NCBI GenBank assembly: GCA_009739215.1 | Contig: VSJF01000003.1 | Coordinates: 372,001 to 436,000, forward strand | Direction: 5' to 3' | DNA from: Floccularia luteovirens | Lineage: Eukaryota; Basidiomycota; Agaricomycetes; Agaricales; Squamanitaceae | Length of the DNA: 64,000 nt | Shown here: in pieces, positions 11,979 through 33,097 of the stretch | How the letters are laid out: each line of letters opens with the position of its first letter | Numbering within the stretch: the first letter of the stretch is position 1 | Made by a program: the position numbers and the translations under genes | The notes under the pieces: model-generated | The model's input: the letters and a program-made list of their open reading frames with translations, nothing else | The model's database searches: none | What the model was told of the DNA's origin: nothing

Positions 11979-11984
11979 GACGAT
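11979..11984 (+). repeat. Target site duplication, left copy (GACGAT)
   Basis: GACGAT directly abuts the left inverted repeat. The same hexamer directly abuts the right repeat at 16751-16756, as expected from a transposase making a 6 bp staggered cut. Confidence 0.9.
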
Positions 11985-12099
11985 TACGGCTGGCGAGAAG
12001 TCTCAGCTTCGTTTTGATGTTGTTACTCACACTTTCCCTTTTCGGGTCACCGTGACACTACCGTGTGACAACAACTCTGCGCTATCATCGTGGCATCTA
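11985..12099 (+). repeat. Left terminal inverted repeat, 115 bp
   Basis: Begins TACGGCTGGCGAGAAG at its outer end and ends GTGGCATCTA inside. Read base by base, it is the exact reverse complement of 16636-16750. Homology stops abruptly at both edges. Confidence 0.95.
12046..12066 (+). promoter_or_regulatory. Palindromic motifs inside the inverted repeat, possible transposase sites
   Basis: Within the left repeat, GTCAC-C-GTGAC (12046-12056) overlaps a second hairpin, ACAC-TACC-GTGT (12055-12066). The same pair occurs in the right repeat in inverse orientation. Subterminal palindromes are often transposase-binding sites, but that role is inferred here. Confidence 0.4.
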
Positions 12100-12371
12100 A
12101 TGCCCAATTCTTTGCGCGGTAGCGATGAAAACATTAGATTTCATGATATGTTAGGATAAAGTAATAGTAGGGGACATATCAAATGGGTAGTATAGAGAAT
12201 TCAGAATTTTTTGTCAAATCAAGGAACTAAATGATGTAAAAAGTAGAATACTGTACGGAATACTGTACGAAAAAACTAAACTATGAGCAGAAAATGAGCG
12301 TATAGCAATAGAAAACACACTGACATAGCAGTGCGAAAGTGCTGAGGATATGTGTGTGGAAAATGTGACAT

Positions 12372-14890
12372 CTAGGCAGTGTTGTTTATGTCGTTGTCAA
12401 GTTTTTCGAGTTGTTTATTGATTTCATTTAATGAGTAATGGCGGAGTTTACTGCAGACTGCTGAACATTTGTGTTGTTCAATGAAATCTCTGAATCCTGC
12501 TAGTCCATGGTCACCAAGACCAGATTTACTAGGTCATAACAAGTTTGATTAGCAAGTTAACTCAGTAGAAAGTATCAATCGCTTACCCAAGTGGTGTATG
12601 TGTCATTGGATCAAAAAGTGTCATGATAGTCTCATGACTACCATTAGGATTACGGTCCAATGAGCCTAATAAATCTTTTTAGTATGACCTAAATTGCACT
12701 ACTAGTACCGAAATTACCTTGAATATCTGCAAACATGTATTCACAAGCTGAACTTTCAATGACAAAATGGCTAAATGCCATTATAGTTGCGCCCAGTTTA
12801 TCTGAACAATTTCGCATTCCAAAAGTTCCAGAGTATTTGTTGACAGCAGATGAGAGACGACGAGGTTCAACAAGATAAACTGCAGTAACGTTATGTAATT
12901 CATCGTGTTTGCGTCGTGTTGCTATGCTGACTGGTGCCTCCAATTCATCTTCAGAATTGCAAGGATTGGCATCCCTCACTTCTTCATCATTAACAGCAGC
13001 AGCCTCGGGTTCATCAAGAACTTTTATGATGAATCCATCAGAGATTTGGAAGTCTAGAAGAAAATTATGGAGTTAATGATAACGATACAGGAAACATAAT
13101 GTAAAGCTTACCTGCTATCTCTACACCTTTAACCTCTGCTTTTTTAGTAAATAAAGTAGAGAAGTATTCCATTCGCTTCAGACGGATTAGGTCATTCTTG
13201 AGGCATTCAAAGGAGGCTTTAAGTGTAATCCCAATGCCTTGTCCCTTTCCAATGTTGACTAGTTTCTTCGCAACATAGGATTTGTCATCCATTACAAACT
13301 ATGTCTCTGGGTGAGTAACGTTGTGATTATATAACAGTAACACTGACTGCAAACACATCTTTTGTCTTTCCGCGATCCGAAGATGACAGAACTATGGGTA
13401 TCTGGTCAATATACCCATATTCTACTGTAGATGCATCCGAAAAGATAGGTGTGCCATTGGTATGGTTGATTTCACATGAGAGACGTGTGAATTTCACCAA
13501 TTTCAGATCTTGAGGCTGTGGTTGCGTCACAGCTATAGATTCCAATCCTCTATCTCGCTCAAAAGTACTTGTAAGTGGTGTGAAGTTCTCTCTATCTATT
13601 TAGAGATTAATGTCGGAATGAGTATATAGGCAATGCAGTCACAACTCATAAACTTACTGCTGCAAAATCGTTTGTTACTGCTTCGGCCACCTTTACCTGA
13701 CATTGATGTTCGGGTCCCACGTTTAGAAGAGGTTACTTGACGCTTGCGTTTTCCGTTACTATTACTGATACTCATAGTTGATTCTAGCATGGATGACTCA
13801 TCATCTTCCCCTTCGCCAGTTCTTTGCATAAACTTCGGTTCAATAATATTAAACTTATATTCCTGAAACTTAGAAGTGAAATATGCTTACCCGGTCCACA
13901 TGGATAAATAGCTCAACTGAAAATGATGATCCTCGGTTTCCCTTTGACATTCCTGAGGGAGGAACAAGGTACATGTCCCGTAATCCATGTTGATTATACT
14001 TATTGTAAAACTGACGCAATGTTAGAGTTTCATCCCCAAGTGGCAAGGCTAGATTTTTGCACATGCGCAGTTCAGTCTCACTTCTATTTTATGTGAAAAG
14101 TGAGATTTGAAATTATAAAATTGGATGGTTTTGACATACGGTTTCAAGTCTGCAGCATGAGTTTCAGTCCATCGTGGATTAATGCTTCGCACAATATATT
14201 CTTTCAGTTCTGCAGATAAGAAGTAAGTTGATCATTTATATACTAAATTGTAGAACTTGAACTTGCCTAAGAGTGTCATAGACTCAGCAAATGGCTGGCA
14301 GCATTTTCCTAGAATCCGATCAACTGAATTTGGTGCATTACTTCTTCGACATTCATAGCCAACTGCAAATGTAGGTGCTGATATATTTCGCCCTCGCAGG
14401 CTCTCAAGCTCTGTGGCTGGTGTTGCTGGGCCAACTTGCCGGTTCAAACGGCAGTCCAAAAGTTCTTTTCGGCGAGTTTGCCCTGCTAAAGTAGGTTCGT
14501 CTATTACGCCATTCTCTTGATGTGCTAATATTATAAATAGTTGATTACATCTGAGCCTGATGCAAATATCATAATTGAATAGTACGTACCAAGTCTTTTA
14601 CAGGTTCCACAAGGGTTGCTAACATTGGTTCCACTAAGCCCACATTCGAAACATTGTTTGAATTTTTCCTTTAGATTCCATTTGTGAGCTCAACATAGTA
14701 AATGGACAGGTGACAGAGTGCGAACCTTGATAAAAGCAATCTCAGCATCAGTAATGCTATTCTTATTCAGCTTTTTACAAAGCTGACAGAGGATTGCATC
14801 CATTTGCATACGTGGAAAGACTGTTCCACATCCATTTGCATCATTATCGGGTCCACCACAAGGTTGAATGTTTCTCTGAGACTGCGACAT
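12372..14890 (-). CDS. Alpha-type (MHCK/EF2K) protein kinase with Cys-rich N-terminus, transposon cargo
   Basis: Atypical Ser/Thr kinase of the alpha-kinase family (myosin heavy chain kinase / eEF2 kinase type). The start at 14890 gives MSQSQRNIQPCGG. The N-terminal part has paired cysteines (CGG..., CGTVF, CQLCKK, CFECG, NPCGTCK) that suggest a zinc-binding module. A basic Ser/Lys-rich linker follows near 13680-13830. The kinase domain shows a nucleotide-binding-type lysine in SYVAKKL, the core FSHFVIESSACEYMFADIQ, DPMTHTPLGKSGLGDHGLAGF, and the terminal His/Cys zinc cluster EQHKCSAVCSKL. There are many short introns and no internal stop once spliced. It lies 133 bp downstream of the transposase in the same direction, inside the inverted repeats. 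Substrate is unknown; fungi such as Coprinopsis have expanded alpha-kinases. Confidence 0.85.
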
Positions 14891-15023
14891 GATTGTTGAG
14901 GTGGCAAGAGTTCTGCTGAAGGTCTCAGCCGATGGAAAATTCAGATTTTATGTGTGTTTGAGTTTGATAGATTATGCAAGCACCAAAAAAACTTCATATT
15001 TCAATGTACTACTGACTACGTTA

Positions 15024-16626
15024 TTATAGTGATAGAATCTCTACTATAGCTTCGAAAATATCCCATGCATTTAAAAGTGTGATAATCGGAAATCCCAACT
15101 GTGCTAAGGCATTATCTGCTTGTGCCCGAAATTCATCATCAACAAAATTAAGTACTTCAGCACGACCTTCCATACCACCTAGTTCTTCACGAAGTTGTTT
15201 AACAAGATCAAGACTGACTGTTATTGAACAGTCTCGTGCATTAGCGCGTGCATTTTCTGGAACCATCCAGACATGGCGAGGTGGCATTCCACTTGGCAAC
15301 AATTTCTCTTTTTGCCGCTTCAGAGAATGATTATTCCAATATTCACGGAATTCATCCAAACGCTGCTGTACGAGAGGTGGCCACAGCCACTTAAAAACCT
15401 GACTAAAAAGATCTCAGTAAAGAACCGGAAGAAACTAGAATATAGTAACATACACATGCAACCAGTTATTTGGATTGAGTATACCCGCCTCTTTTCCAGT
15501 GAAGAGCACTTCCTTGATGCTATGACCTTCACCTTGACGTTTCCACCTCCAAAATGACTCAATTGGGGTGTTATGTTTGCTTTGAACTTGAATAGCAGTT
15601 GGCCATTTTTCAACCATGAAATCGGGGGCAGCATGAAGCCTAAATTCTCGATTAATAAAGTGAAAATACAAATAATGATTTAAGTTGGCTTACCGGAGTG
15701 TTTCATGACAGCGGATCATGTCTGAAATTTCAGAACCTTTATCTGTTGTAAGTTGAATTGGAATACCTGATTTGCACTATATTAACAAGTATCATAGAAG
15801 CTGGAGATAAAGTACTTACATTTATATAGTTCAACGAAGTCTAGAAAAGCATGTCCAATAGCTCTTGATGTGCGGACATTAGGAAGAACGCGCAAATAGG
15901 GTACAAAAGATGAGAATTCATCTTTAAATGCATAGAGTGGAAGTGAGAGACCATGACCCATTCGGAGTGCTTGTTCTGCAAGCTTCTCATGCCCATCAGA
16001 GTGCAACTGATGCCAGGGTCCCAGGCAATCGAGTGGGACACGCTTGATCATGTTACGGTTAGAAAAACAAAGGCGTAGATTGAATTCAGGTTCAAAATTG
16101 TCATGGAGAATCTGTCGCAAATCATCGCTAACACAATATAAGAAAGTTTAATGAAAACATCGTAGCAAACTAACATACCGCTTCAACAGGATGCCCGTAT
16201 TCGCAAGGCGTTGTCGAACCTGTGCAACACCCCATTTCCCAGCTGTATCATCAGCCTTGATGTCAACAACTAACTGGATGGTATCTTGCAAAGATGTTTC
16301 TTGATTTTTTCGAATGCTTTTTATCCCTAGTCTTTTGCGCAACCGATATAGCCCTGCTCGTCTGAGGGAGAAGTTAACATCAATAGCAACACCATGCACA
16401 GGAATACAAACTTAATGTATAGGCCGAATTCACGCTCCAATCTTGCAAGTTGTTGTTCTGCAGTGAGACCGGAGCCATTGTTTTCCTTTGCATATTGATT
16501 GAAGGCCACTTGAAGCTCCTCATCGGAAGGGTCTACATTGCATAATAAGTACAATAGCATGTATAAGGAAACTTTTCACGTACAGTTTTTCTCGCCCCAC
16601 TGGTTACTGCCTGAAGATTTGGGCAT
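15024..16626 (-). CDS. Integrase-core (DDE) transposase
   Basis: Member of a family of integrase-core proteins common in Agaricomycetes. The start codon at 16624-16626 lies 10 bp inside the right inverted repeat, so promoter and leader must lie within the repeat or outside the element. An N-terminal helix-turn-helix-like part (LYRLRKRLGIKSIRKNQ) is followed by the catalytic core. Likely metal-binding acids are the Asp in LHSDGHEKL, the Asp in LTTDKGSEI and the Glu in TPIESFWRWKR, forming a DDE triad. After it come VFKWLWPPLVQQRLDEF and EYWNNHSLKRQKEKLLPSG, also family-typical. At least five short introns splice in frame and no stop interrupts the domain. It is probably active in cut-and-paste transposition of this element; that activity is inferred. 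Confidence 0.85.
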
Positions 16627-16635
16627 TGTGTTGAA

Positions 16636-16750
16636 TAGATGCCACGATGATAGCGCAGAGTTGTTGTCACACGGTAGTGTCACGGTGACCCGAAAAGGGA
16701 AAGTGTGAGTAACAACATCAAAACGAAGCTGAGACTTCTCGCCAGCCGTA
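16636..16750 (-). repeat. Right terminal inverted repeat, 115 bp
   Basis: Exact reverse complement of 11985-12099. Its inner edge is 10 bp from the transposase start codon, so it probably carries the transposase promoter or leader. Confidence 0.95.
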
Positions 16751-16756
16751 GACGAT
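16751..16756 (+). repeat. Target site duplication, right copy (GACGAT)
   Basis: Matches 11979-11984 and directly follows the right inverted repeat. Confidence 0.9.
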
Positions 16757-22084: not shown

Positions 22085-22541
22085 GGTCTTAATCTCAATT
22101 GCCATGAAATCAGTTGCTCCCCTGTTCATGAATGATCAATAGGAGACCAGATATCCAGGTTGTGACGACAACTCACAGTTTGAACAACTTTTTTTCCTCC
22201 TGGTTTCGTAGGAATTGTGTATTCCGGCCCCCGGATTAGATTAAACAACTTTCCCTCACCACCTACAAGGATAATATTACTAGAGCCGACACCTCGATGA
22301 ACACGACCTATTCAATACATTGCTTCTAGTCCCGTTGAGTCATCACTGGGATCGATGGCAAGGTAGAGATGATACACCATGTTGCAAGGCAAGGAATAGT
22401 TGCTTGGCGGACCGGATATTGTATGAGGACTCACCTCTTATGGAAGTGCAACAACACCTTCGTAAAATCATCGTACTGTATTTTAAATTGGGACTGTACA
22501 ATATACATACAGTTATTCGTAATGACATCATTTCGAATCCA
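22085..22541 (-). pseudogene. FunK1 kinase fragment with dead catalytic loop
   Basis: The minus strand retains SAKQLFLALQHGV, RVHRGVGSSNIILVGGEGK and a MAIEIK-type motif, in the same order as the intact copy just upstream. The catalytic HRDISPGN has become HRGVGSSN and several stops interrupt the frame. Confidence 0.65.
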
Positions 22542-22542
22542 A

Positions 22543-25025
22543 CTAGCCTTGCTTCTGACGCTTCGACGATTGAGGGTCATGCTGTTTGTCGCCTGTTGTA
22601 GTCGGAGGCCCCGGACGCTTGATAGGAGGTAGAGGGCAAATTGTGACGTCCTCTAGCTCCTGGACAAGGTCCAATATAGCACCAAACTTGGAGTGAATCT
22701 CGGTAAACATTTCTTCATGGACGGTGTTCCCTACCAAATGGGCCTTGTAGCTGTCCAGGAGTAGCATCCTTAGTCCGCCAAGTATACGTAGATAACTTTG
22801 GAACTGTACTGGAAGAAAATCGCGGCTGTCTTTGAATATTAAATTGCTCATGAAAAAATCTGATCTTCTTTTGCCCGCGATATGCGAAAATAATCCCTGC
22901 GCAAAACTGTGCTGTTGGAGAATTGCCTCGGGAATATTATCGAAGTTTTGTTCGGGGCAGTACCATGCTAAAGACCACATGCCAACCCACCAAATTGACT
23001 CCAAGTCGTGAAGATAATTATGAACCAGTTCGGGTGTATCCACCGGGTTTCCAGATGATTTTAGATCTGACAAATCTTTAACGTTCCATTGGTCCAAATT
23101 CGGTCCATCAAACATATATCGGCCGGCTTCAATCTCGACTGCCATGAAATCAACAGTTCCCTATTCGTGGAAAATCAACAAGAGACTTGCTATCCAGGTT
23201 GCGACAACTACTCACAGTTCGAATCTTATGCTTTCCTCCCGATCCCTTAGGAATTGCATATTCCAAGTCAGATAACTTCCCCTGGTCACCTTGAAAGAGA
23301 ATATTGCCAGGGCTGATGTCTCGATGAACATATCTTTTTCTATACATTATTTCTAGCCCTATAACATGTGTTGAGTTATCACTGAAATGGGTGACAAGAT
23401 GGAAATGAACCTTCTACAGCATGCTTTAAGGATAGGAATAGTTGCTTGATGGATCGGATCTTGTATAGGGGTATGCACACCTCTTTGTAAACGATACGGG
23501 TGTGGACTTTCTCGCTAATCTTAGGATATTTAATTTCAACTGCCTCAACTGATGAGTTTATCTGGGATGAGCCAACACTATCCGAATGATGTTTGTTCGA
23601 ATCGAATTTTAGGACAGTTGGTTCAGCTTTTATTCTCAAATCAGGGTGTGTCGGAGATTCCGAGCCTAAATTAGTAGTGTGGTCATCCCTGCCGTCAATA
23701 GTGACACGCCCATACGCAAGGATGGTCAGAAAATACTTTCTCTCCTCATCTGAACATCCTTCGAGAATTTTTTTGAGAATGTCGGCTTCGTTAGGGCGAT
23801 CCGCATCCAACCATACATCCTTGAGAACAACTGGATCCCCAACAACCCCCCCGTTTTGGTCCAACAAACGAACTTTGAATACTCGAGTTGCACGACCGCG
23901 GATTGCGTCAGCGGAGAAATCAGACAGGACATCTTCTGTGCGATAAATTTGGGTTGTAGTGTTCCCATTATCGTCCCTTTTGTGAACCTCTATGTCATAT
24001 GCCCAGATATTTCTTGCAGATGTTCCAGGGCCGCGGATAAGTTTCATGGTAGGGTCCCATCCGAGTTGAGTGGTAGTAGCAAGGGACAACGAAGTGACCA
24101 GCCGAATGAACTTCCTGGGTTCCTATGATGAATTAATAAAAAGTACTTACTATATGTGGCCCAAAACCAACCTTCATAAAATCAAACGGAGTGGATACCA
24201 CAACGAGACTCCGACAACAAAACCACAATCTCGTGTTTGAATCTTCAATTGTAATACCAAAGGTGTATCTCCGGCGTGGATCATTCCGCATGATATGCTG
24301 CAAGCTCCATAGAATCTTTGCAGCATTCTTGGGGGGAAAAAATGAGTCAAGTCACGAACAAACATCATGTCTTCCCCACTCACATCGTAGAGATTGTCTA
24401 AAGTATCTGACTTTTTATACTCCTCGGCATAACCAATATCAAGCCAGTCAACCTTCGATGCACCGTCTACTCTGCAAAGAGATGTATTATAAGGATGGGC
24501 TTTGCTCAAGTGACCGTATCCATCAGGACGGGATGTGTTATAACGTGTTGATTTTGGGCTTTTATTAGGCTCGCTGCAATAGTTGAGCGTCGCTGTGTTG
24601 ACATTATGGGGATCGAAATAAACCGCATGTTGAAGTATTTGTTCACGTATGTCTTTCAAAGGAGCGAAAGTCTCTGTCTCGTTTTTAGGCGGTGAAGTGG
24701 TGAATTTGGACCACCCAGTTTCAGGCAAAAGACAACCAGAATCTAGCAAATTAGACTCTGTCTTGATGACATCGACACCGTTGTACCTGATGATATGGTC
24801 AAGTATGTACTCCAATTCAACTTGTGGCACCGATGAGCCTAAGTCTTCAATGACAGCTTCACGAGCTGAGTTCAGTTGATTTGATCGATAGGAAGAGTGA
24901 TGGACTTTTTTATGTTTTGAAGTGTTTCCTGTGAGCTGGCAGGTGCTCGGTCCGTATTGGCACTCATAGTGTGAAGTTGAAGGATAATTGCAACATGATA
25001 ATCTGAACAACGTTGTCGTTAACAT
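22543..25025 (-). CDS. FunK1 family fungal protein kinase
   Basis: Basidiomycete-expanded FunK1 kinase; physiological role unknown. Spliced exons give SAREAVIEDLGSSVPQVELE, a linker, NAAKILWSLQHIMRNDPRRR, FGITIEDSNTRLWFCCRS, a fungal-specific insert, then the kinase core: YKEVCIPLYKIRSIKQLF, the catalytic loop YVHRDISPGNILFQGDQGK, SDLEYAIPKG in the DFG position, and TVDFMAVEI. The C-lobe holds LVHNYLHDLESIWWVGMWSL and a QSSKRQKQG tail. Introns near 24360-24420, 24133-24160, 23343-23400 and 23160-23215 are GT-AG. The start is uncertain: 25025 keeps the frame, while 24967 (MSANTDRAPASSQET) looks more family-like but needs a one-base shift near 24870. It is the only complete copy in the cluster. 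Confidence 0.85.
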
Positions 25026-25119
25026 ATTGTTTGTCGGCCAAATAGTGACCTTATAGGTGATAGCATATATATCATGAACACAAATTTCTATACAAGTACA
25101 GTTATAGACACTACTTAAT

Positions 25120-25252
25120 GTCCAGAAAGCCTGCTTCTGGCGCTCCGAAGATATGCCATGTTGTGAAAGTAGTGGGCAGAGATTGACATCCTTTAGTTTC
25201 TGGGCATAGCTCAATATAGCACCAACCTGGAGTGAATACCTACGCCGATGGA
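25120..25252 (-). pseudogene. FunK1 C-terminal tail fragment
   Basis: The minus strand reads QVGAILSYAQKLKDVNLCPL and SSERQKQAF, matching the terminal part of the intact FunK1 protein (KFGAILDLVQELEDVTICPL, SSKRQKQG). It is upstream of the intact gene's start, so it belongs to another lost copy. Confidence 0.6.
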
Positions 25253-25282
25253 GATTCATCCAATCAAGAATCAACTGACATC

Positions 25283-25372
25283 CAGGTGGGCACGCCAGGT
25301 CTGATCCATAACTATCTTCATGACTTGGAGTCAGTTTGGTAAGTTGGCATGTGGTCATCAGCACGGAGCTGT
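25283..25372 (+). pseudogene. FunK1 C-lobe fragment, inverted
   Basis: The plus strand reads GLIHNYLHDLESVW, then a stop, then VGMWS, corresponding to LVHNYLHDLESIWWVGMWSL of the intact kinase but in opposite orientation to the neighbouring fragment. About 25373-25946 shows nothing else I can support. Confidence 0.6.
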
Positions 25373-25946
25373 CTGATTGCTTAAGCCTTTATCAGCCAAA
25401 GTCAATAGATAGAGAGTGCATAGGGCTAGCTTCCACGAATCAATTTCCTGACCCGATCTGAGGCGTATTTGGTTGAATAAAAATGATTTGGTGGTCTGCC
25501 CTATGGTTAGGAGCTTGAAAGACAGGCATGAATAATGGATTGGCAAGATGTAGTCCCTCGAAATTAGATTAGACGGCTACTCCTACAGTTCCCAGGTCAT
25601 TCACTGTATAACTAATACTTCTTGGATTTCTTCTTGTGTATCTATATGGCAGTGGGGTAGCATTAAAGTTGACTTAACCTGGGTGTGCAAGGGAGTATAC
25701 TGCTGCTTGTTCATTCGGTGACCTTGCCAGCTAGAGCAGCAGCTCGTGACATGCCTTTCAACCTGCTCCTGGAGCCGAAAATGAGAGAGTCAACGTGCTT
25801 TATATAAACGATGCACATGAATTCGAACATATTAATATTATGTCACTGTGTCCGCACATTGCAGAAATTGCATCGTCATGTGATCACTACTTATGAAATA
25901 GGATATCCAGAAATTCTGATAACTAACTACCTCGCAAGCTACAACC

Positions 25947-26418
25947 ATGAACTCCCCACCAGATCCTGGCTCACCTTCACTATCTACAACCTCAACTGAA
26001 TCTCCACCACCGGAGGAATCTGGCTTCCAGCCAACGCCAACGAATATCATGAACATTGCTAACCAGTTATCTCCATCCTTTTCTGGTGTGGGGGGTTCAT
26101 CGAAACGCCGTCTACCAACGGGGTCTTCATTCGCTGCATCGGTCTCAAATCGTGATGCTAAAACTAGGAGGCGTGGAGAGCCTGGAAGAAAATCTGATTT
26201 GCGTGGTTGGGAAGGAGGTAAGGAAGGGGGAAAGAAGGACGAGTTATTAGACCATGCCCTAGTTGAGTATCTTCGCAGTGGTGAGCATTTTTTGCTTTAT
26301 ATTTTTCTTACCCTTGAGTGCTCACAAAACGTTAACATTGACAGAAATTGGGGATCCGTTCCTATTTTGAGTTACGACTTTGTGTTCGCTTCCTTCCATT
26401 CATTCAATCCGACGGGGT
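25947..26418 (+). pseudogene. Ser/Pro-rich conserved-looking gene, 5' part only
   Basis: The ATG at 25947 opens a 111-residue exon starting MNSPPDPGSPSLSTTSTES, with FQPTPTNIMNIANQLSP and a basic SSKRRLPTGSSF stretch, ending at a GTGAGC donor (26281). The second exon from 26345 continues EIGDPFLF and stops at TGA. If one T of the TTTT run at 26365-26368 is ignored, it runs on as ELRLCVRFLPFIQSDG. Immediately afterwards a displaced AP-2 mu fragment begins, so the gene seems cut by a rearrangement. I do not recognise the family. Confidence 0.5.
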
Positions 26419-26448
26419 AAGCTACGAGATATACAGAATGGCTACTAC

Positions 26449-26635
26449 AGCTAGGGAGTCGCACTTCCAACAACTTAACAATCGACGATGGTTGTATTGA
26501 GAGATGTTGGTACACATGGAATAACATCTTTGTAGCCATAGCTGATTGTTGAACTTCGTTCGTCTTCATACAGCGATAGCATATGATACTTGTATGGTCC
26601 AACGGTTGCAATCACTTGCTATGACAACCTAGACG
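26449..26635 (-). pseudogene. Displaced fragment of the AP-2 mu gene
   Basis: Plus-strand sequence here (CTAGGGAGTCGCACTTCC, GGTTGTATTGAGAGATGTTG, AGCATATGATACTTGTATGG, AACGGTTGCAATCACT) aligns, with small deletions, to 10436-10655 inside APM4. The match starts within an APM4 intron, so the copy arose at DNA level and not by reverse transcription. It has no open frame. Confidence 0.7.
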
Positions 26636-26752
26636 TGAACAACTAGAAGACTGAGTCTTTCTTTCTCAGTGAAATGAGAGCTCCGTATAAGTTCAACATG
26701 TTTACCATACTGTAACGCGGAATTAATTGTGTATGAGTACTGTTATTTTCAG

Positions 26753-27720
26753 ACACTGTTCTAAGCCCAAAGAGCCTTGCTTCTGACGCTTCAAAACTTC
26801 AACATTGAGAACCATGCTTTTCGTCTGTCTTTGTGGGGAACGTCGGATGCTGAATAGAGGGCAGAGGGCAAATATTGACATCCTTTGCTTTCTTGGCAAG
26901 GTCCAGTATAACGCCAAACTTGGAATGAATGTCTATAAATAATTCCTCATTAACAGTGTTTTCTGCCAAGTGGGTCTTGTAACTCTCCACGAGTAGGGTC
27001 CTTAGCCTGGCAAGGATACATAAATAACCTATGAATTGTGGTGGAAGAAAATCGAGTTTCTCGTCGAATGAGACTGTGTTCGTGAAATCTTTTTCCATTG
27101 TGCACGAAAATAATTCCTGCGCAGAATAGTGGCTGTTGGAGATTTGACTCAGGAATATAGTTCTCTGCCGGGCAGCTCCATGCTAAAGACCACATTCCAA
27201 CCCACCAAACTGACTCGAAGTCATGAAGATAATTATGGATCAGATCTGGAGGACCCGCTGGGACGATAAATGATTCCGAATCTTCAATGTTGTATCGGGA
27301 CAGATCAGGTGCTCCGATCCTGTATCGATTGACTTCAATTCCGACCGCCATGAAGTCAATTGTTCCCTACTCGTAAATAAGAGACCAGATATTCAGGTTG
27401 CGACGACTACTCACAGTTTGCAAATCATATTTTCCTCCTAATCCCACAGGAATTGCGTATTTCAGGTCAGACAATTTTTCTGATCACCTATAGAGATAAT
27501 ATTGCTGAAGCTGACGTCTTGATGAACATAACCTATGCTATACATTATTTCTAGTCCTATTATATGTGATCAGACACCACTGGAGTCTATGACAAAATGG
27601 ATATAAATCTTGTACAGCATGTTGCAAGGCAAGGAATAGTTGTTTGGTGGACGGAACATTGCATAGAAAACTATACACATTTTGAAGGTGGTTATGGCCA
27701 TGTTGTGCTGTTGTAACCAA
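26753..27720 (-). pseudogene. FunK1 kinase pseudogene lacking most of the N-lobe
   Basis: The minus strand keeps MAVGIEVNRYRIGAPDLSRY, LIHNYLHDFESVWWVGMWSL, LRTLLVESYKTHLAENTV, FGVILDLAKKAKDVNICPLP and, upstream, STKQLFLALQHAV. A frameshift lies between NGKR and DFTN near 27100, the catalytic-loop region near 27480-27530 is degraded, and no N-terminal half is present. Confidence 0.75.
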
Positions 27721-28184: not shown

Positions 28185-31100
28185 CTAAAGTGATGACTTT
28201 CGTTTTCTGACAGAGAATATATGACTCAACACTTCCTTTCCTTTCCGTTTCGGTGAAGATCGTAAAGTGTGAGTTGGCCGTCTTTCGGATATGTTGCTTT
28301 GAATCCTTCTCATCTCGACTCCACGTTCCTCTGTTATAAAATCAAACCCTCGCTCTCTAGAAACGATACCAGTTGACATATCCGTCCTACTCGCGGATCG
28401 CAGGTCAACAACAGACGGTATCCTGTTTCCAGGATCAATCGAGATAGAACTTCTGTTCATGGGAAGCCTTCTCTTAAGAGCGGTCAATCCAATCCCATCT
28501 CCTGACGAAGCGGAGTACTGCGATAGATCTTGATTAGGGTTTTGCTTCTTGATGTATCGCACAATGTCAAGATCGTCTGGCCTAAACCCAACCTTGTATG
28601 CTTTCGCGATAATCCTTGGTGCGAGCGATACGACAAATGTGATCACTAAACCGAACCAGAAGTATGCAGAGCCAAGGACCAATTCGTCGTTTCCGTAAAG
28701 ATTCGTGACAGCATATCCTGGTGCAATTAAGGCGTATATGATCTATTACAAACTGTGAGAATATGCTTTAGAAATGGGGTTTATACGTGCACGAACCGTG
28801 AAGATCCACACGACAACTGTTCCGATGAATACGAAGAAACACAACCAGTAGGTCCATGCAGTGGCAGAGAGCCCCGTGAATGTATTAGCCACCATCACCC
28901 CCGAAATGGCCATTGTCTGTGAAAGCCATTAGAGATCATGACGTTTGTTATTGGGAAAGAAAATACCGTAGAGAACTGCTGTAGACGTGTATCAAAACCA
29001 TCGCTACGTGCAGATGTCGAAGTGTATGTGTATAAGATAAGGAAGAAAATGATCACAGACTATGGAAATATGTATAAGCATCAACTCAGAAGCAGCAGTA
29101 AACAATACCCACCTGTACTATTCCATCTATAATGTATACGAAGAAGTGTTTCAATCCAAACCAATGACCCTCTCGTCCAAAGTGGTATAATTCGGGTAAT
29201 TGCATTAGAACTTCGGCATCTATAATAGAAATATCAAAAGGTGGCAATCTTGCATAGAATGAATATACAAACCAAGTATTCGGTCAAAAAGACCTATTCC
29301 AATAACGGCTGCAATAGTCCATAGCGAATTCCAAAAGAGGACGTAGATATAATCAAAAACGCTATCCCATCGTCAAAATGTAAATTTCAGACCGATTCAA
29401 AACAATCAAACGTACAAATTTGCACTCCAACCATCATAAATTTGGAACCACCATAGAATACCAGTGGGCACCATATTTTTATAGAAAAAGTTCAAAATCC
29501 TGCACGGATATATCAGATCCGAATTTCTGATCTAAGGAGGATGGACACTTACATGGTGCCATTACGAGCATATGACCAATGTCCATGAACGAGGAGTAAC
29601 TTCTTCAGGAAGCGGAACTAATTGATAGTCAGATTCTACCCCAGAATATATGAAAATAGAAGCCTACGTACCTGTGCAATGGCATAGTCTGATGAGTTCA
29701 CAGCTTGAAGTCCCTCTTCTCCAGAAATACCAATGCCAACGTCTGCAGCCTAGGTAGGATGAGTTGGTTGAAGTGAAACAGACACTCATAAATCAACTTG
29801 CCTGGATCATACTAACGTCATTAGCTCCGTCCCCGATTGCGAGTGTCATTGATCCTAGTCCGTCTTTGACGAGTTTGACGATCAAAGCTTTTTGCATTGG
29901 TGATACTCGACAACATATGACTCCCTCACACAAAGTAGCGAGATGTAAAAGCAAACTTTTATTTTCTTCGTCAGCGAAGGCCTGAGTGATGTCACAGTCA
30001 GTTTCACTACCGGCCAAATCTAGTCTCAATACATACCTCAAGTAGAGCTGCTCCATCAACCACAAGTACAAAGCCACCTGGTCTGTCTCCATTGTGCGAT
30101 CCGACAATCGAGGATACATCAGTACTCATACGATGTAAACGGTTTCTGTCACGAGATTCCATTGAGCTCCGTGCGGAACCGGCTCCTTTGTTTATTGCTG
30201 GGATATCCTCGACTTCCGGGAAGAATTTTTGGATAGCAGCTTTGATCTGTTCGTTCACAGGACGTGGTCCGCCGCGGACTATGATAATGTTCGAGTCAGT
30301 TTGGATCAGGTTAGTACTGCGACCAATGGCTGGTAGACATTTGTCAAGTCAGAGAGTTATGCATATAATTGTTCACAATCGTTGTAGCTCACCAACGGCA
30401 GTCTCCAATTTATCTCCTGTAGCCACCCAGATCTTAATGCCTGCTCGTTTCAGATCCGCGATGGTTTCTGGTACACCATCTTGTAGACGATCTTCGATTG
30501 CGGTCGCACCTAGCAAACGCAAATCTTGCTCTAGTTCATTTGAAACTCTTTCAATTGCTTCTTCACGATTTTCCATAGCTATGGTAGCTTGATGATAGCG
30601 TCTCGACCATTCCTGATAATCTTCCTCTGTAAACTCGTGAATACGAAGAAATAGGATAAAAGGATAGATTAAGTACCTTTTAAAACCTTGTATGCCAATG
30701 TCAATGTCCGCAAACCATTATTCGCAAATTCGTTGAGATGCTTCTCGGTCTCTGCTCTCAGTCCATTCGTATCTCCCTGAAGCCGTTCGAAAATGACATT
30801 ATCCGCTCCTTTTGTGAGCAGGAACAACCTGTTATCGCCTTCGTCGAGCTTGCGCAGTACCACACTCATTCGCTTTCGAGCACTGGTAAATTCGAGTATA
30901 TTCAACAACTGGTATCTTTCCACATCCATCGAGAAGGGTGTTTGTAGAGACAGGATATCTTTTTCGCGACCTAAGAACACATAACCAACGTCTGCGGCGG
31001 CCTGAACAAGAGCGGCTTCATCAGGCGATTGAGCCCTATATTCTATTTCTCCAGTTACTGGATTGTGTGCTACCAGGACAGTATGACAAAGACCAAGAAC

Positions 31101-33097
31101 AGTGAAAAATCCGTTCAGAAGTCTAGCATGTAGGGCTTGTGAGGAATTGGGGTCAACTATAGCAGCTTCTTCGAGGTCACGTTGAAGGTTAGAATCTTTG
31201 AAATGGACAATTTCGGAATTTTGCGATTTAGTGTCTGAATTGACATCGATACGTGAGCTAGTGCTGGGCGGCGATTGCGTCTTCGCTGGCCAGATATTAA
31301 TAGCTATAGGTTCTTGGTCAGGCTTAATAGGAACTTGTTTGATGTCGTCGGTTTCGCTGGGAAACTCCGGATCACCACAATATGCTTGGCCTCCGATGGA
31401 ACATTGACGGAAAACCATAAGATTCTAGAAAAGAAGGTTATGAGCACCCGCACCGGCAGGAGCGTAGAAACACAAACCTGAGTGAGAGTACCTGTTTTGT
31501 CCGAAAAAATGTATTCGATTTGGCCGAGGTCATCGGATAAGTTCCAACTTCGTGGTATAGTGGGCCTATTTGTTTTCTTGTAATAAATATCGCCGTCCAG
31601 ATAAATAAACGCCGCTTGACAGGTCCTAACAAATTCAATGGAAATATAGAGTGATATAGGAACGATATCTTGGAATCTGAGTGGGGGTGAGTGACAAGTC
31701 TCCAGAAAGATTAGAACAACACTAACGTTAGTAGAGCAAAGATGAAAGTGATTAATCCATTAATTTTGGGGTTATCATCACTGTGATTGTCACCAAATAG
31801 CCATGGCGCGCCGAGAGGGTAGTAGTGTTCCTCGAGAGCGGAATCAACGATAGCACACACAGTAGCTAGTACAGCCAGAATGACCAAGTTGGATATTCTG
31901 GAATAAATTCAGTTGGCGATAGAAAATAAATATAGGCTGACATACACTTGAGGGTTCATTTGCCTTTCGACCTTGCTCCGTTTACTAGGCGTACCACCAG
32001 AGTTCATGACAATTTTACTGTCGAGTCCAGTGAAAAGAACGATACCGATTGCCCAATCTGTATTTTTGAGGACCGTCCCCCGCAAAAATGTCATCGACAG
32101 ATCAACAGGCGATGTCTCGTTTTTAATAGTGACATTAGCGTTGAGCCTGTACATATCCGTGTCGGGTCTGTCACATTTGATTACAATTGAATCTTGTGAA
32201 TTTGCACATTCACGTGCATTCCGCAGATGTGTAAGGGCAGGGACTCCACTACGAGACTTGAGATTGGTCTCCCCATCGAGATTCATTGTCTCTACAAATG
32301 CAACATTGCCATCCTCAGACGTGGCACAAATGAGGATGTCGGCTGGGAATGATTCTTTGTCCATAATTTTGACGAAATCTCCGACTTTGACATCCTCCCA
32401 GAGGGTCGTTTTCCAGTAGGGCTTCTGTTGACCCTCGGTACCTTTCATATCGTAGTGGTCGTAATCAATATCAATGTCTGGTTCTGTCGGGTGGTTATGC
32501 TTTTCCCCATGGTGCGAGGGTTCCTTGGCTTTATTTTGGGGAAGTATGCCCCGTATAAAAGTTTTGCTTTTTGCCTCTGTTAAATTGGGATTTTTGAAGT
32601 TACCTCCTGTAAGAACCCGAACTTTGCCGTAATTAATCTGTTTATCGGACTGGTGTCGTTTGAAATCTTCGTAGCCATCTTTGAGAGCTGTTATTCCAAG
32701 AATGACCAACAGAGGTAGAATTGCAACTCCAGCTGCTATTGTCGAAAACTTAGGGAAAAACTGGGTGATTGCAATTCCTAGGAAAAACCTATGTTTCCAT
32801 TGTCAAGCATGGCATCGGAAAGAACTTCAGTTGGACGCACATATTGGCTACACGCCTGAACTGCTCCATCAAGTTCCTGGGCAAGAAGGTGATGATCGTA
32901 TATTTGGATGTTATGACTTGATTCGTTGCATATGTACATCCTGGCTTGACCTTGCCCTTGGAGTCAAGACAGTCGGCGGGAAGAGGGTTATTTACATAGA
33001 TGGTTCGTGGTGGACCAGGTTGGCGCTTTCTTGAGAACAAGCTTTCTACAGAAAATTCAGAAAGCCAGGAGAACCAAGGACCTGCTCGGGACTTCAT
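28185..33097 (-). CDS. P4-type ATPase, phospholipid flippase (Dnf1/Dnf2-like)
   Basis: ATP-driven translocase moving phospholipids to the cytosolic leaflet of plasma or endosomal membranes. The start at 33097 gives [15 protein letters not shown]. Family blocks: [18 protein letters not shown] and [20 protein letters not shown] (N-terminus), [42 protein letters not shown], the phosphorylation motif [19 protein letters not shown]...[37 protein letters not shown] and the hinge [13 protein letters not shown]. The C-terminal membrane region lies at 28700-29760. A basic Ser-rich cytosolic tail ends with RKRKSSL. Many introns; no broken frame seen. Its sequence class matches yeast Dnf1/2 better than Drs2 or Neo1. 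It would act with a Cdc50-type partner, not present in the window. Confidence 0.94.

What the first reader, a model, noticed from the sequence alone, without database searches (positions are those of the whole stretch)
11985..16750. A complete DNA transposon carrying an alpha-type protein kinase as cargo
Seen directly: perfect 115 bp inverted repeats (11985-12099 and 16636-16750), a 6 bp target duplication GACGAT on both outer edges, an integrase-core gene with candidate DDE residues (LHSDGHEKL, LTTDKGSEI, TPIESFWRW) and, within the same repeats, a full alpha-kinase with FSHFV, DIQ, GLGDHGLAGF and the terminal HxC/C cluster. Known: alpha-kinases are strongly expanded in some mushrooms. As I recall the repeat classification, IS3EU elements have 6 bp duplications and TAY ends. 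Inference: the element mobilises the kinase, which could explain lineage-specific alpha-kinase expansions. The kinase might serve the element by acting on host or transposase proteins, or be passive cargo. I know of no description of such a kinase-carrying element, but cannot search.
Basis: partly seen in the sequence, partly recalled or inferred. Interest (0 to 1): 0.93.

Follow-up and report, generated by a model that had tools for sequence, protein, structure and literature searches.

The report
Jumping gene carrying its own kinase
A recently active fungal DNA transposon carries, besides its transposase, an intact alpha-type protein kinase that selection has kept; such pairs are already mentioned in print for rust fungi but hardly studied, and they could help explain why some fungi have many copies of this otherwise rare kinase.

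Summary
Window 11985-16750 is a complete 4,766-bp DNA transposon: perfect 115-bp inverted repeats, 6-bp duplication GACGAT, a 7-exon DDE transposase (428 aa) and an 11-exon alpha-kinase (648 aa), both on the minus strand. The assembly holds six full-length copies, each with its own perfect 6-bp duplication; one has empty sites in related repeats. A diverged second family (C19, TSD TCTGGA) has the same two open genes. Against it both genes show purifying selection (dN/dS 0.07 transposase, 0.18 kinase; dS 0.9-1.0), so passive cargo is unlikely. In five other Agaricomycetes a related kinase lies on the same contig as a related transposase, and the two trees show no supported conflict. Ends (TACGG..CCGTA), TSD and fold fit the IS3EU superfamily. 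The pairing is not new: Kojima 2025 (PMC12730594) says in passing that TET-positive IS3EU elements, mostly of rusts, hold an alpha-kinase in opposite orientation to the transposase. Here no TET gene lies between the genes, and they are in tandem. New here, as far as I searched: evidence that the kinase is a stable, selected component in Agaricomycetes, its Cys-rich / ubiquitin-like / alpha-kinase layout, and CpG-biased decay of copies. What the kinase does is inferred.

The parts
11979..11984 (.). left target-site duplication GACGAT
11985..12099 (+). left terminal inverted repeat, 115 bp, begins TACGG
   Evidence: 14 matches in the own genome, 12 of them ends of six full copies
12372..14890 (-). 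alpha-kinase gene, 648 aa, 11 exons: 14890-14726, 14668-14590, 14524-14267, 14209-14140, 14083-13891, 13832-13658, 13595-13348, 13298-13112, 13053-12718, 12665-12587, 12528-12372
   Evidence: hand-made model, intron positions shared with the C19 relative, Pfam PF02816 E 4.7e-22
14891..15023 (-). 133-bp gap between transposase stop and kinase start; no room for a TET gene
15024..16626 (-). DDE transposase gene, 428 aa, 7 exons: 16626-16584, 16532-16412, 16361-16179, 16127-15820, 15766-15694, 15639-15456, 15398-15024; candidate triad D160, D227, E270
   Evidence: fold of the homologue P0012
16636..16750 (-). right terminal inverted repeat, 115 bp, ends CCGTA
16751..16756 (.). right target-site duplication GACGAT

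Best explanation
An autonomous, recently active DNA transposon of the IS3EU type with two genes of its own. Shown: insertion at 6-bp duplicated sites by elements ending in 115-bp inverted repeats; an integrase-fold transposase with a conserved D, D, E; a second gene, an alpha-kinase with conserved expected active-site residues, that has stayed with the transposase through long divergence under purifying selection. Inferred: the kinase serves the element. It acts in trans by phosphorylating host proteins that control the element (silencing, repair or cell-cycle proteins), or the transposase itself, so that elements encoding a working kinase spread better. I put 'kept because it helps the element' at about 0.75, a host target at about 0.5 and the transposase as target at about 0.3.
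For: Six copies with six different perfect TSDs and empty sites for one. Four of six copies have both genes open. dN/dS window against C19: transposase 0.074 (bootstrap 0.048-0.110), kinase 0.175 (0.135-0.225), dS 0.97 and 0.91. Residues K407, K408, E521, H554, D568, Q570, D589, C622 conserved in 10 of 10 aligned kinases, H616 and C618 in 9 of 10 (their roles are recalled). Partner transposase on a contig of the same length in the same organism for 5 of 14 kinase relatives. Distances of 7 pairs correlate, r 0.847, 19 of 5040 permutations as high. Copies decay mostly by C>T/G>A at CpG (18 of 24), which fits host CpG methylation and so a host response worth evading.
Against: No expression, kinase activity or target was tested. 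9 of 14 kinase relatives had no partner among the 120 of 170 transposases listed. A distant transposase on C2 has no detectable kinase within its 10 kb, and one kinase place (C2:820184) has no transposase in its 10 kb, so the pairing is not universal here. dN/dS rests on one pair with dS near 1. The CpG decay shows that copies are not protected for good. Correlated trees may partly reflect host history.
Confidence: 0.75

Rival explanations
1. The kinase is a host gene caught by chance and carried as passive cargo.
For: Accessory genes in transposons are often passengers (general knowledge). Two of six copies have a broken kinase.
Against: dN/dS 0.175 over dS 0.91; same two genes in the second family; linked relatives in five other species.
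Confidence: 0.07
2. The kinase regulates its own transposase, for instance its timing, dose or stability, and has no host target of note.
For: Constant pairing and tandem order in the two own families; trees of the two proteins do not conflict.
Against: Nothing direct. No phosphorylation site was examined, and the kinase changes faster than the transposase (dN 0.160 against 0.072).
Confidence: 0.3
3. The kinase gives the host a benefit, or acts as a selfish drive or toxin-like gene, and the transposon spreads as its vehicle.
For: Alpha-kinases can regulate translation (eEF2 kinase is a family member; recalled).
Against: Few, very young copies, two with broken kinase; no sign of a domesticated host copy was found, though this was not searched beyond the 9 places.
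Confidence: 0.1
4. The kinase sits in a separate element nested inside a transposase-only transposon.
For: None found.
Against: No inner inverted pair at the thresholds used; the window family and the C19 family share the layout.
Confidence: 0.01

Closest known systems
TET-positive IS3EU transposons (seven rust species and Tuber indicum), Kojima 2025, PMC12730594 (abstract, passages, section 4.1 and figure legends read)
   Same: 6-bp TSD and TAYGG..CCRTA ends (stated for the rust families); transposase plus alpha-kinase in one element
   Different: There a TET/JBP gene lies between the two and they are in opposite orientation; here they are in tandem with 133 bp between. Kojima gives no analysis of the kinase in the parts I read
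IS3EU / GingerRoot superfamily, PMC10045372 (passages read)
   Same: TA..TA ends, usually 6-bp TSD, integrase-type DDE transposase without an HHCC motif upstream
   Different: No second gene is mentioned in the passages read; placement in the Repbase tree was not tested here
Alpha-kinases (Dictyostelium MHCK-A, TRPM7, eEF2 kinase)
   Same: Pfam family, fold of a homologue model, conserved HxCxxxC end
   Different: Encoded by a transposon; Cys-rich N-terminus and a ubiquitin-like region in front of the kinase domain
Alpha-kinase expansion of rusts, PMC4469406 (passages read)
   Same: Many PF02816 genes: 79 and 39 in two of ten table columns, 5 in one, 0 in seven; the text says highly expanded in the rusts
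   Different: Treated as a gene-family expansion; no transposon link in the passages read

Membership tests
IS3EU | TAYGG..CCRTA (TA..TA) termini | tested here: met
   TACGG..CCGTA; copy L013 reads GCCATA at its right end, one change
IS3EU | 6-bp target-site duplication | tested here: met
   6 of 6 full copies; C19 element TCTGGA; C14 deletion derivative GACGTC (read)
IS3EU | integrase-type DDE transposase | tested here: met
IS3EU | no HHCC motif upstream of the core | tested here: met
   only H124, H155, H158 and C136, C150 before D160; pattern judged by eye
IS3EU | transposase groups with Repbase IS3EU in a tree | not testable with these tools
   Repbase sequences not held
TET-positive IS3EU (Kojima) | TET/JBP gene between transposase and alpha-kinase | tested here: not met
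   133 bp between the two genes; Tet_JBP search of the genome was silent but so was its control
TET-positive IS3EU (Kojima) | transposase and alpha-kinase in opposite orientation | tested here: not met
   both on the minus strand
Ginger1 | 4-bp TSD (per PMC10045372) | tested here: not met
   6-bp TSDs
Alpha-kinase | Pfam PF02816 above cut-off | tested here: met
   79.4 and 85.3 bits against 21.3 for window and C19 proteins
Alpha-kinase | alpha-kinase fold | tested here: met
Alpha-kinase | conserved catalytic and zinc residues | tested here: met
   10 of 10 or 9 of 10 rows; alignment to MHCK-A covers FSHF to the HxCxxxC end; residue roles recalled
Alpha-kinase | protein kinase activity | not testable with these tools
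   needs an enzyme assay

The most novel reading that the evidence does not exclude
The alpha-kinase is a core gene of a large IS3EU branch across Basidiomycota, a trans-acting enzyme that works against host control of the element, as is proposed for transposon-borne TET genes; the alpha-kinase expansions of rusts and some mushrooms are then mostly transposon copy number and not host signalling genes.
Probability: 0.35. Interest if true: 0.85.

Novelty: new variant of a known kind. Interest (0 to 1): 0.6.

Why it matters
A protein kinase is an unusual second gene for a DNA transposon (my general knowledge). If it serves the element, it opens a direct way to ask how a mobile element manipulates its host by phosphorylation, next to the TET genes already proposed to counter silencing. 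It would also give a simple account of alpha-kinase expansions in rust genomes; one such gene appears among 46 rapidly evolving pathogen-associated genes in PMC4150398 (passages read), while a 2010 survey of fungal kinases found one alpha-kinase domain in all (PMC2838846, passages read).

Tried and rejected
Passive cargo: unlikely on dN/dS. Nested insertion: no support. The first kinase model (658 aa) had two wrong introns, corrected with homologues and C19 to 648 aa; searches used the 658-aa version. rva_4 over the genome and Tet_JBP found nothing, but no control rang either, so they show no absence. A viral-contig scan with the transposase alignment found no relative. The profile search with kinases scored a capped candidate list and returned 5 proteins, 3 of them new. 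C22 (distant transposase and a kinase fragment with a stop, same strand, about 2.9 kb apart) and the C2:820184 kinase are degraded; no ends were recognised. Rust kinases and rust genomes could not be reached with these tools. One search checked two alignment columns (60, 63) that are next to, not at, cysteines 61 and 64, so the conservation of those two was not tested.

Full report
OBSERVATION. The element at 11985-16750 is real. Its repeats are 115 nt and perfectly complementary, flanked by GACGAT on both sides. The own assembly (27.0 Mb, 22 contigs; organism not named, a fungus and by its relatives probably an agaricomycete) gives 14 matches to the repeat: 12 are the ends of six full-length copies, one belongs to a short deletion derivative on C14 (162 bp, TSD GACGTC, read) and one to a diverged element on C19. 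The six copies have six different perfect 6-bp duplications: GACGAT, ATAACA, AGTTTC, ACCAGC, AACATA, GTCCTG. The GTCCTG copy lies in a repeated sequence that looks to me like a copia-type retrotransposon (recalled motifs, not tested). 45 places match its joined flanks in whole or part, several over all 300 bases; the three examined align without a gap and with one GTCCTG. That is an empty-site test, and it is passed. The window's own insertion has no empty site in this assembly.

ACTIVITY AND DECAY. Four of six copies have both genes open (window, L009, L011, L012). L010 has a stop in the transposase and a frameshift in the kinase. L013 has its kinase interrupted by a solo-LTR-like insert of 376 bp. 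Among the six copies 25 changes occur in one copy each, 17 of them in L013; 24 of 25 are C>T or G>A, and 18 of these 24 are at CpG, against 13.9% of C+G sites (binomial 2e-11). One further site splits two copies from four. This fits deamination of methylated CpG by the host (inference). The genome has DNA-methylase family matches (6 places).

SELECTION. The C19 element is complete: C19:654268-658936, 4,669 bp, TSD TCTGGA on both sides, inverted repeats of about 58 bp. Its left end reads TACGATACGG, five bases more than expected. Both reading frames are open. Against it: transposase dN 0.072, dS 0.973, ratio 0.074 (bootstrap 0.048-0.110); kinase dN 0.160, dS 0.913, ratio 0.175 (0.135-0.225). 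Within the kinase, residues 96-250, which hold most of the ubiquitin-like region, are the most constrained (0.088) and residues 251-380 the least (0.233); the kinase domain is at 0.196. One pairwise comparison averages over both lineages, and dS near 1 is imprecise.

OTHER SPECIES. Kinase searches gave 14 distinct relatives (11, 3 more; both scored capped candidate lists). For 5 of 14 a transposase relative (120 of 170 listed) comes from the same organism and a contig of the same length: Hygrophoropsis aurantiaca (8,052-bp contig), Hohenbuehelia grisea (HGRIS_006717 / 006718), Pleurotus pulmonarius (EYR36_010649 / 010648), Jaapia argillacea (193673 / 193672), Amanita muscaria (JOM56_004467 / 004470). 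For 9 of 14 no partner was listed. This is linkage by contig and tag, not by reading the DNA, and orientation there is unknown. Over 7 pairs (2 own, 5 others) the distances correlate (r 0.847; 19 of 5040 permutations as high) and the trees show no supported conflict. Shared host history could give part of this.

GENOME-WIDE. Alpha_kinase gave 9 places: six copies, C19, C22 (a fragment beside a distant transposase on the same strand) and C2:820184 (no transposase found in its 10 kb). A distant transposase on C2:16465 has no kinase detected in its 10 kb, so the pairing is not universal.

KNOWN AND NEW. Kojima 2025 (PMC12730594; abstract, passages, section 4.1 and figure legends read) says that all TET-positive IS3EU families have a TET gene between transposase and alpha-kinase, the latter two in opposite orientation; the rust families have 6-bp TSDs and TAYGG..CCRTA ends. 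So kinase-bearing IS3EU elements are in print. Searches for alpha-kinase with transposon and Agaricomycetes (2 papers), expansion and Basidiomycota, transposase, MHCK and fungi (20 of 149 listed), Melampsora, transposon-encoded (15 of 429 listed) and mushroom terms (10 of 1,154 listed) showed no other paper that, by title and start of abstract, describes such an element. Repbase reports and most subscription papers are not held. New here, as far as these searches reach: a tandem version without TET in an agaricomycete, selection on the kinase, the linked pairs, the domain layout and the CpG-biased decay. PMC4469406 (passages read) calls alpha-kinases highly expanded in rusts, with 79 and 39 in two of ten table columns and 0 in seven. 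That these are transposon copies is a hypothesis I could not test.

VERDICT. A real, recently active two-gene transposon and a new variant of a known kind. The function of the kinase is the open and interesting part.

Noticed in passing
L014:4286-4447 (C14): A 162-bp deletion derivative (MITE-like) with matching ends and TSD GACGTC, which is itself a palindrome.
   Followed up: partly
L013 (C1:21614-26760): The most mutated copy: 17 of the 25 single-copy changes, a solo-LTR-like insert of 376 bp with an apparent 5-bp duplication in the kinase, and a changed base at its right end.
   Followed up: yes
L038:807-5128 (C22): A distant transposase (23% identity) and an alpha-kinase fragment on the same strand about 2.9 kb apart, amid repeats; a degraded older element of the same design.
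   Followed up: partly
L037:5128-5418 (C2:820184 region): An alpha-kinase fragment without a transposase in its 10 kb, near retrotransposon-like repeats.
   Followed up: partly
L039:6460-6819 (C2:16465 region): A transposase fragment of another branch (55% to a Gymnopilus protein) without a kinase detected in its 10 kb.
   Followed up: partly
window 14210-14266: A kinase intron with a GC donor in the window family where the C19 family has GT.
   Followed up: no
window 22373-27666: Diverged direct repeats about 4.2 kb apart (75-79%), perhaps a tandem pair of paralogous genes.
   Followed up: no
window 30669-32709, minus strand: Open frames that look like a P-type ATPase, perhaps a flippase (motifs recalled).
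   Followed up: no
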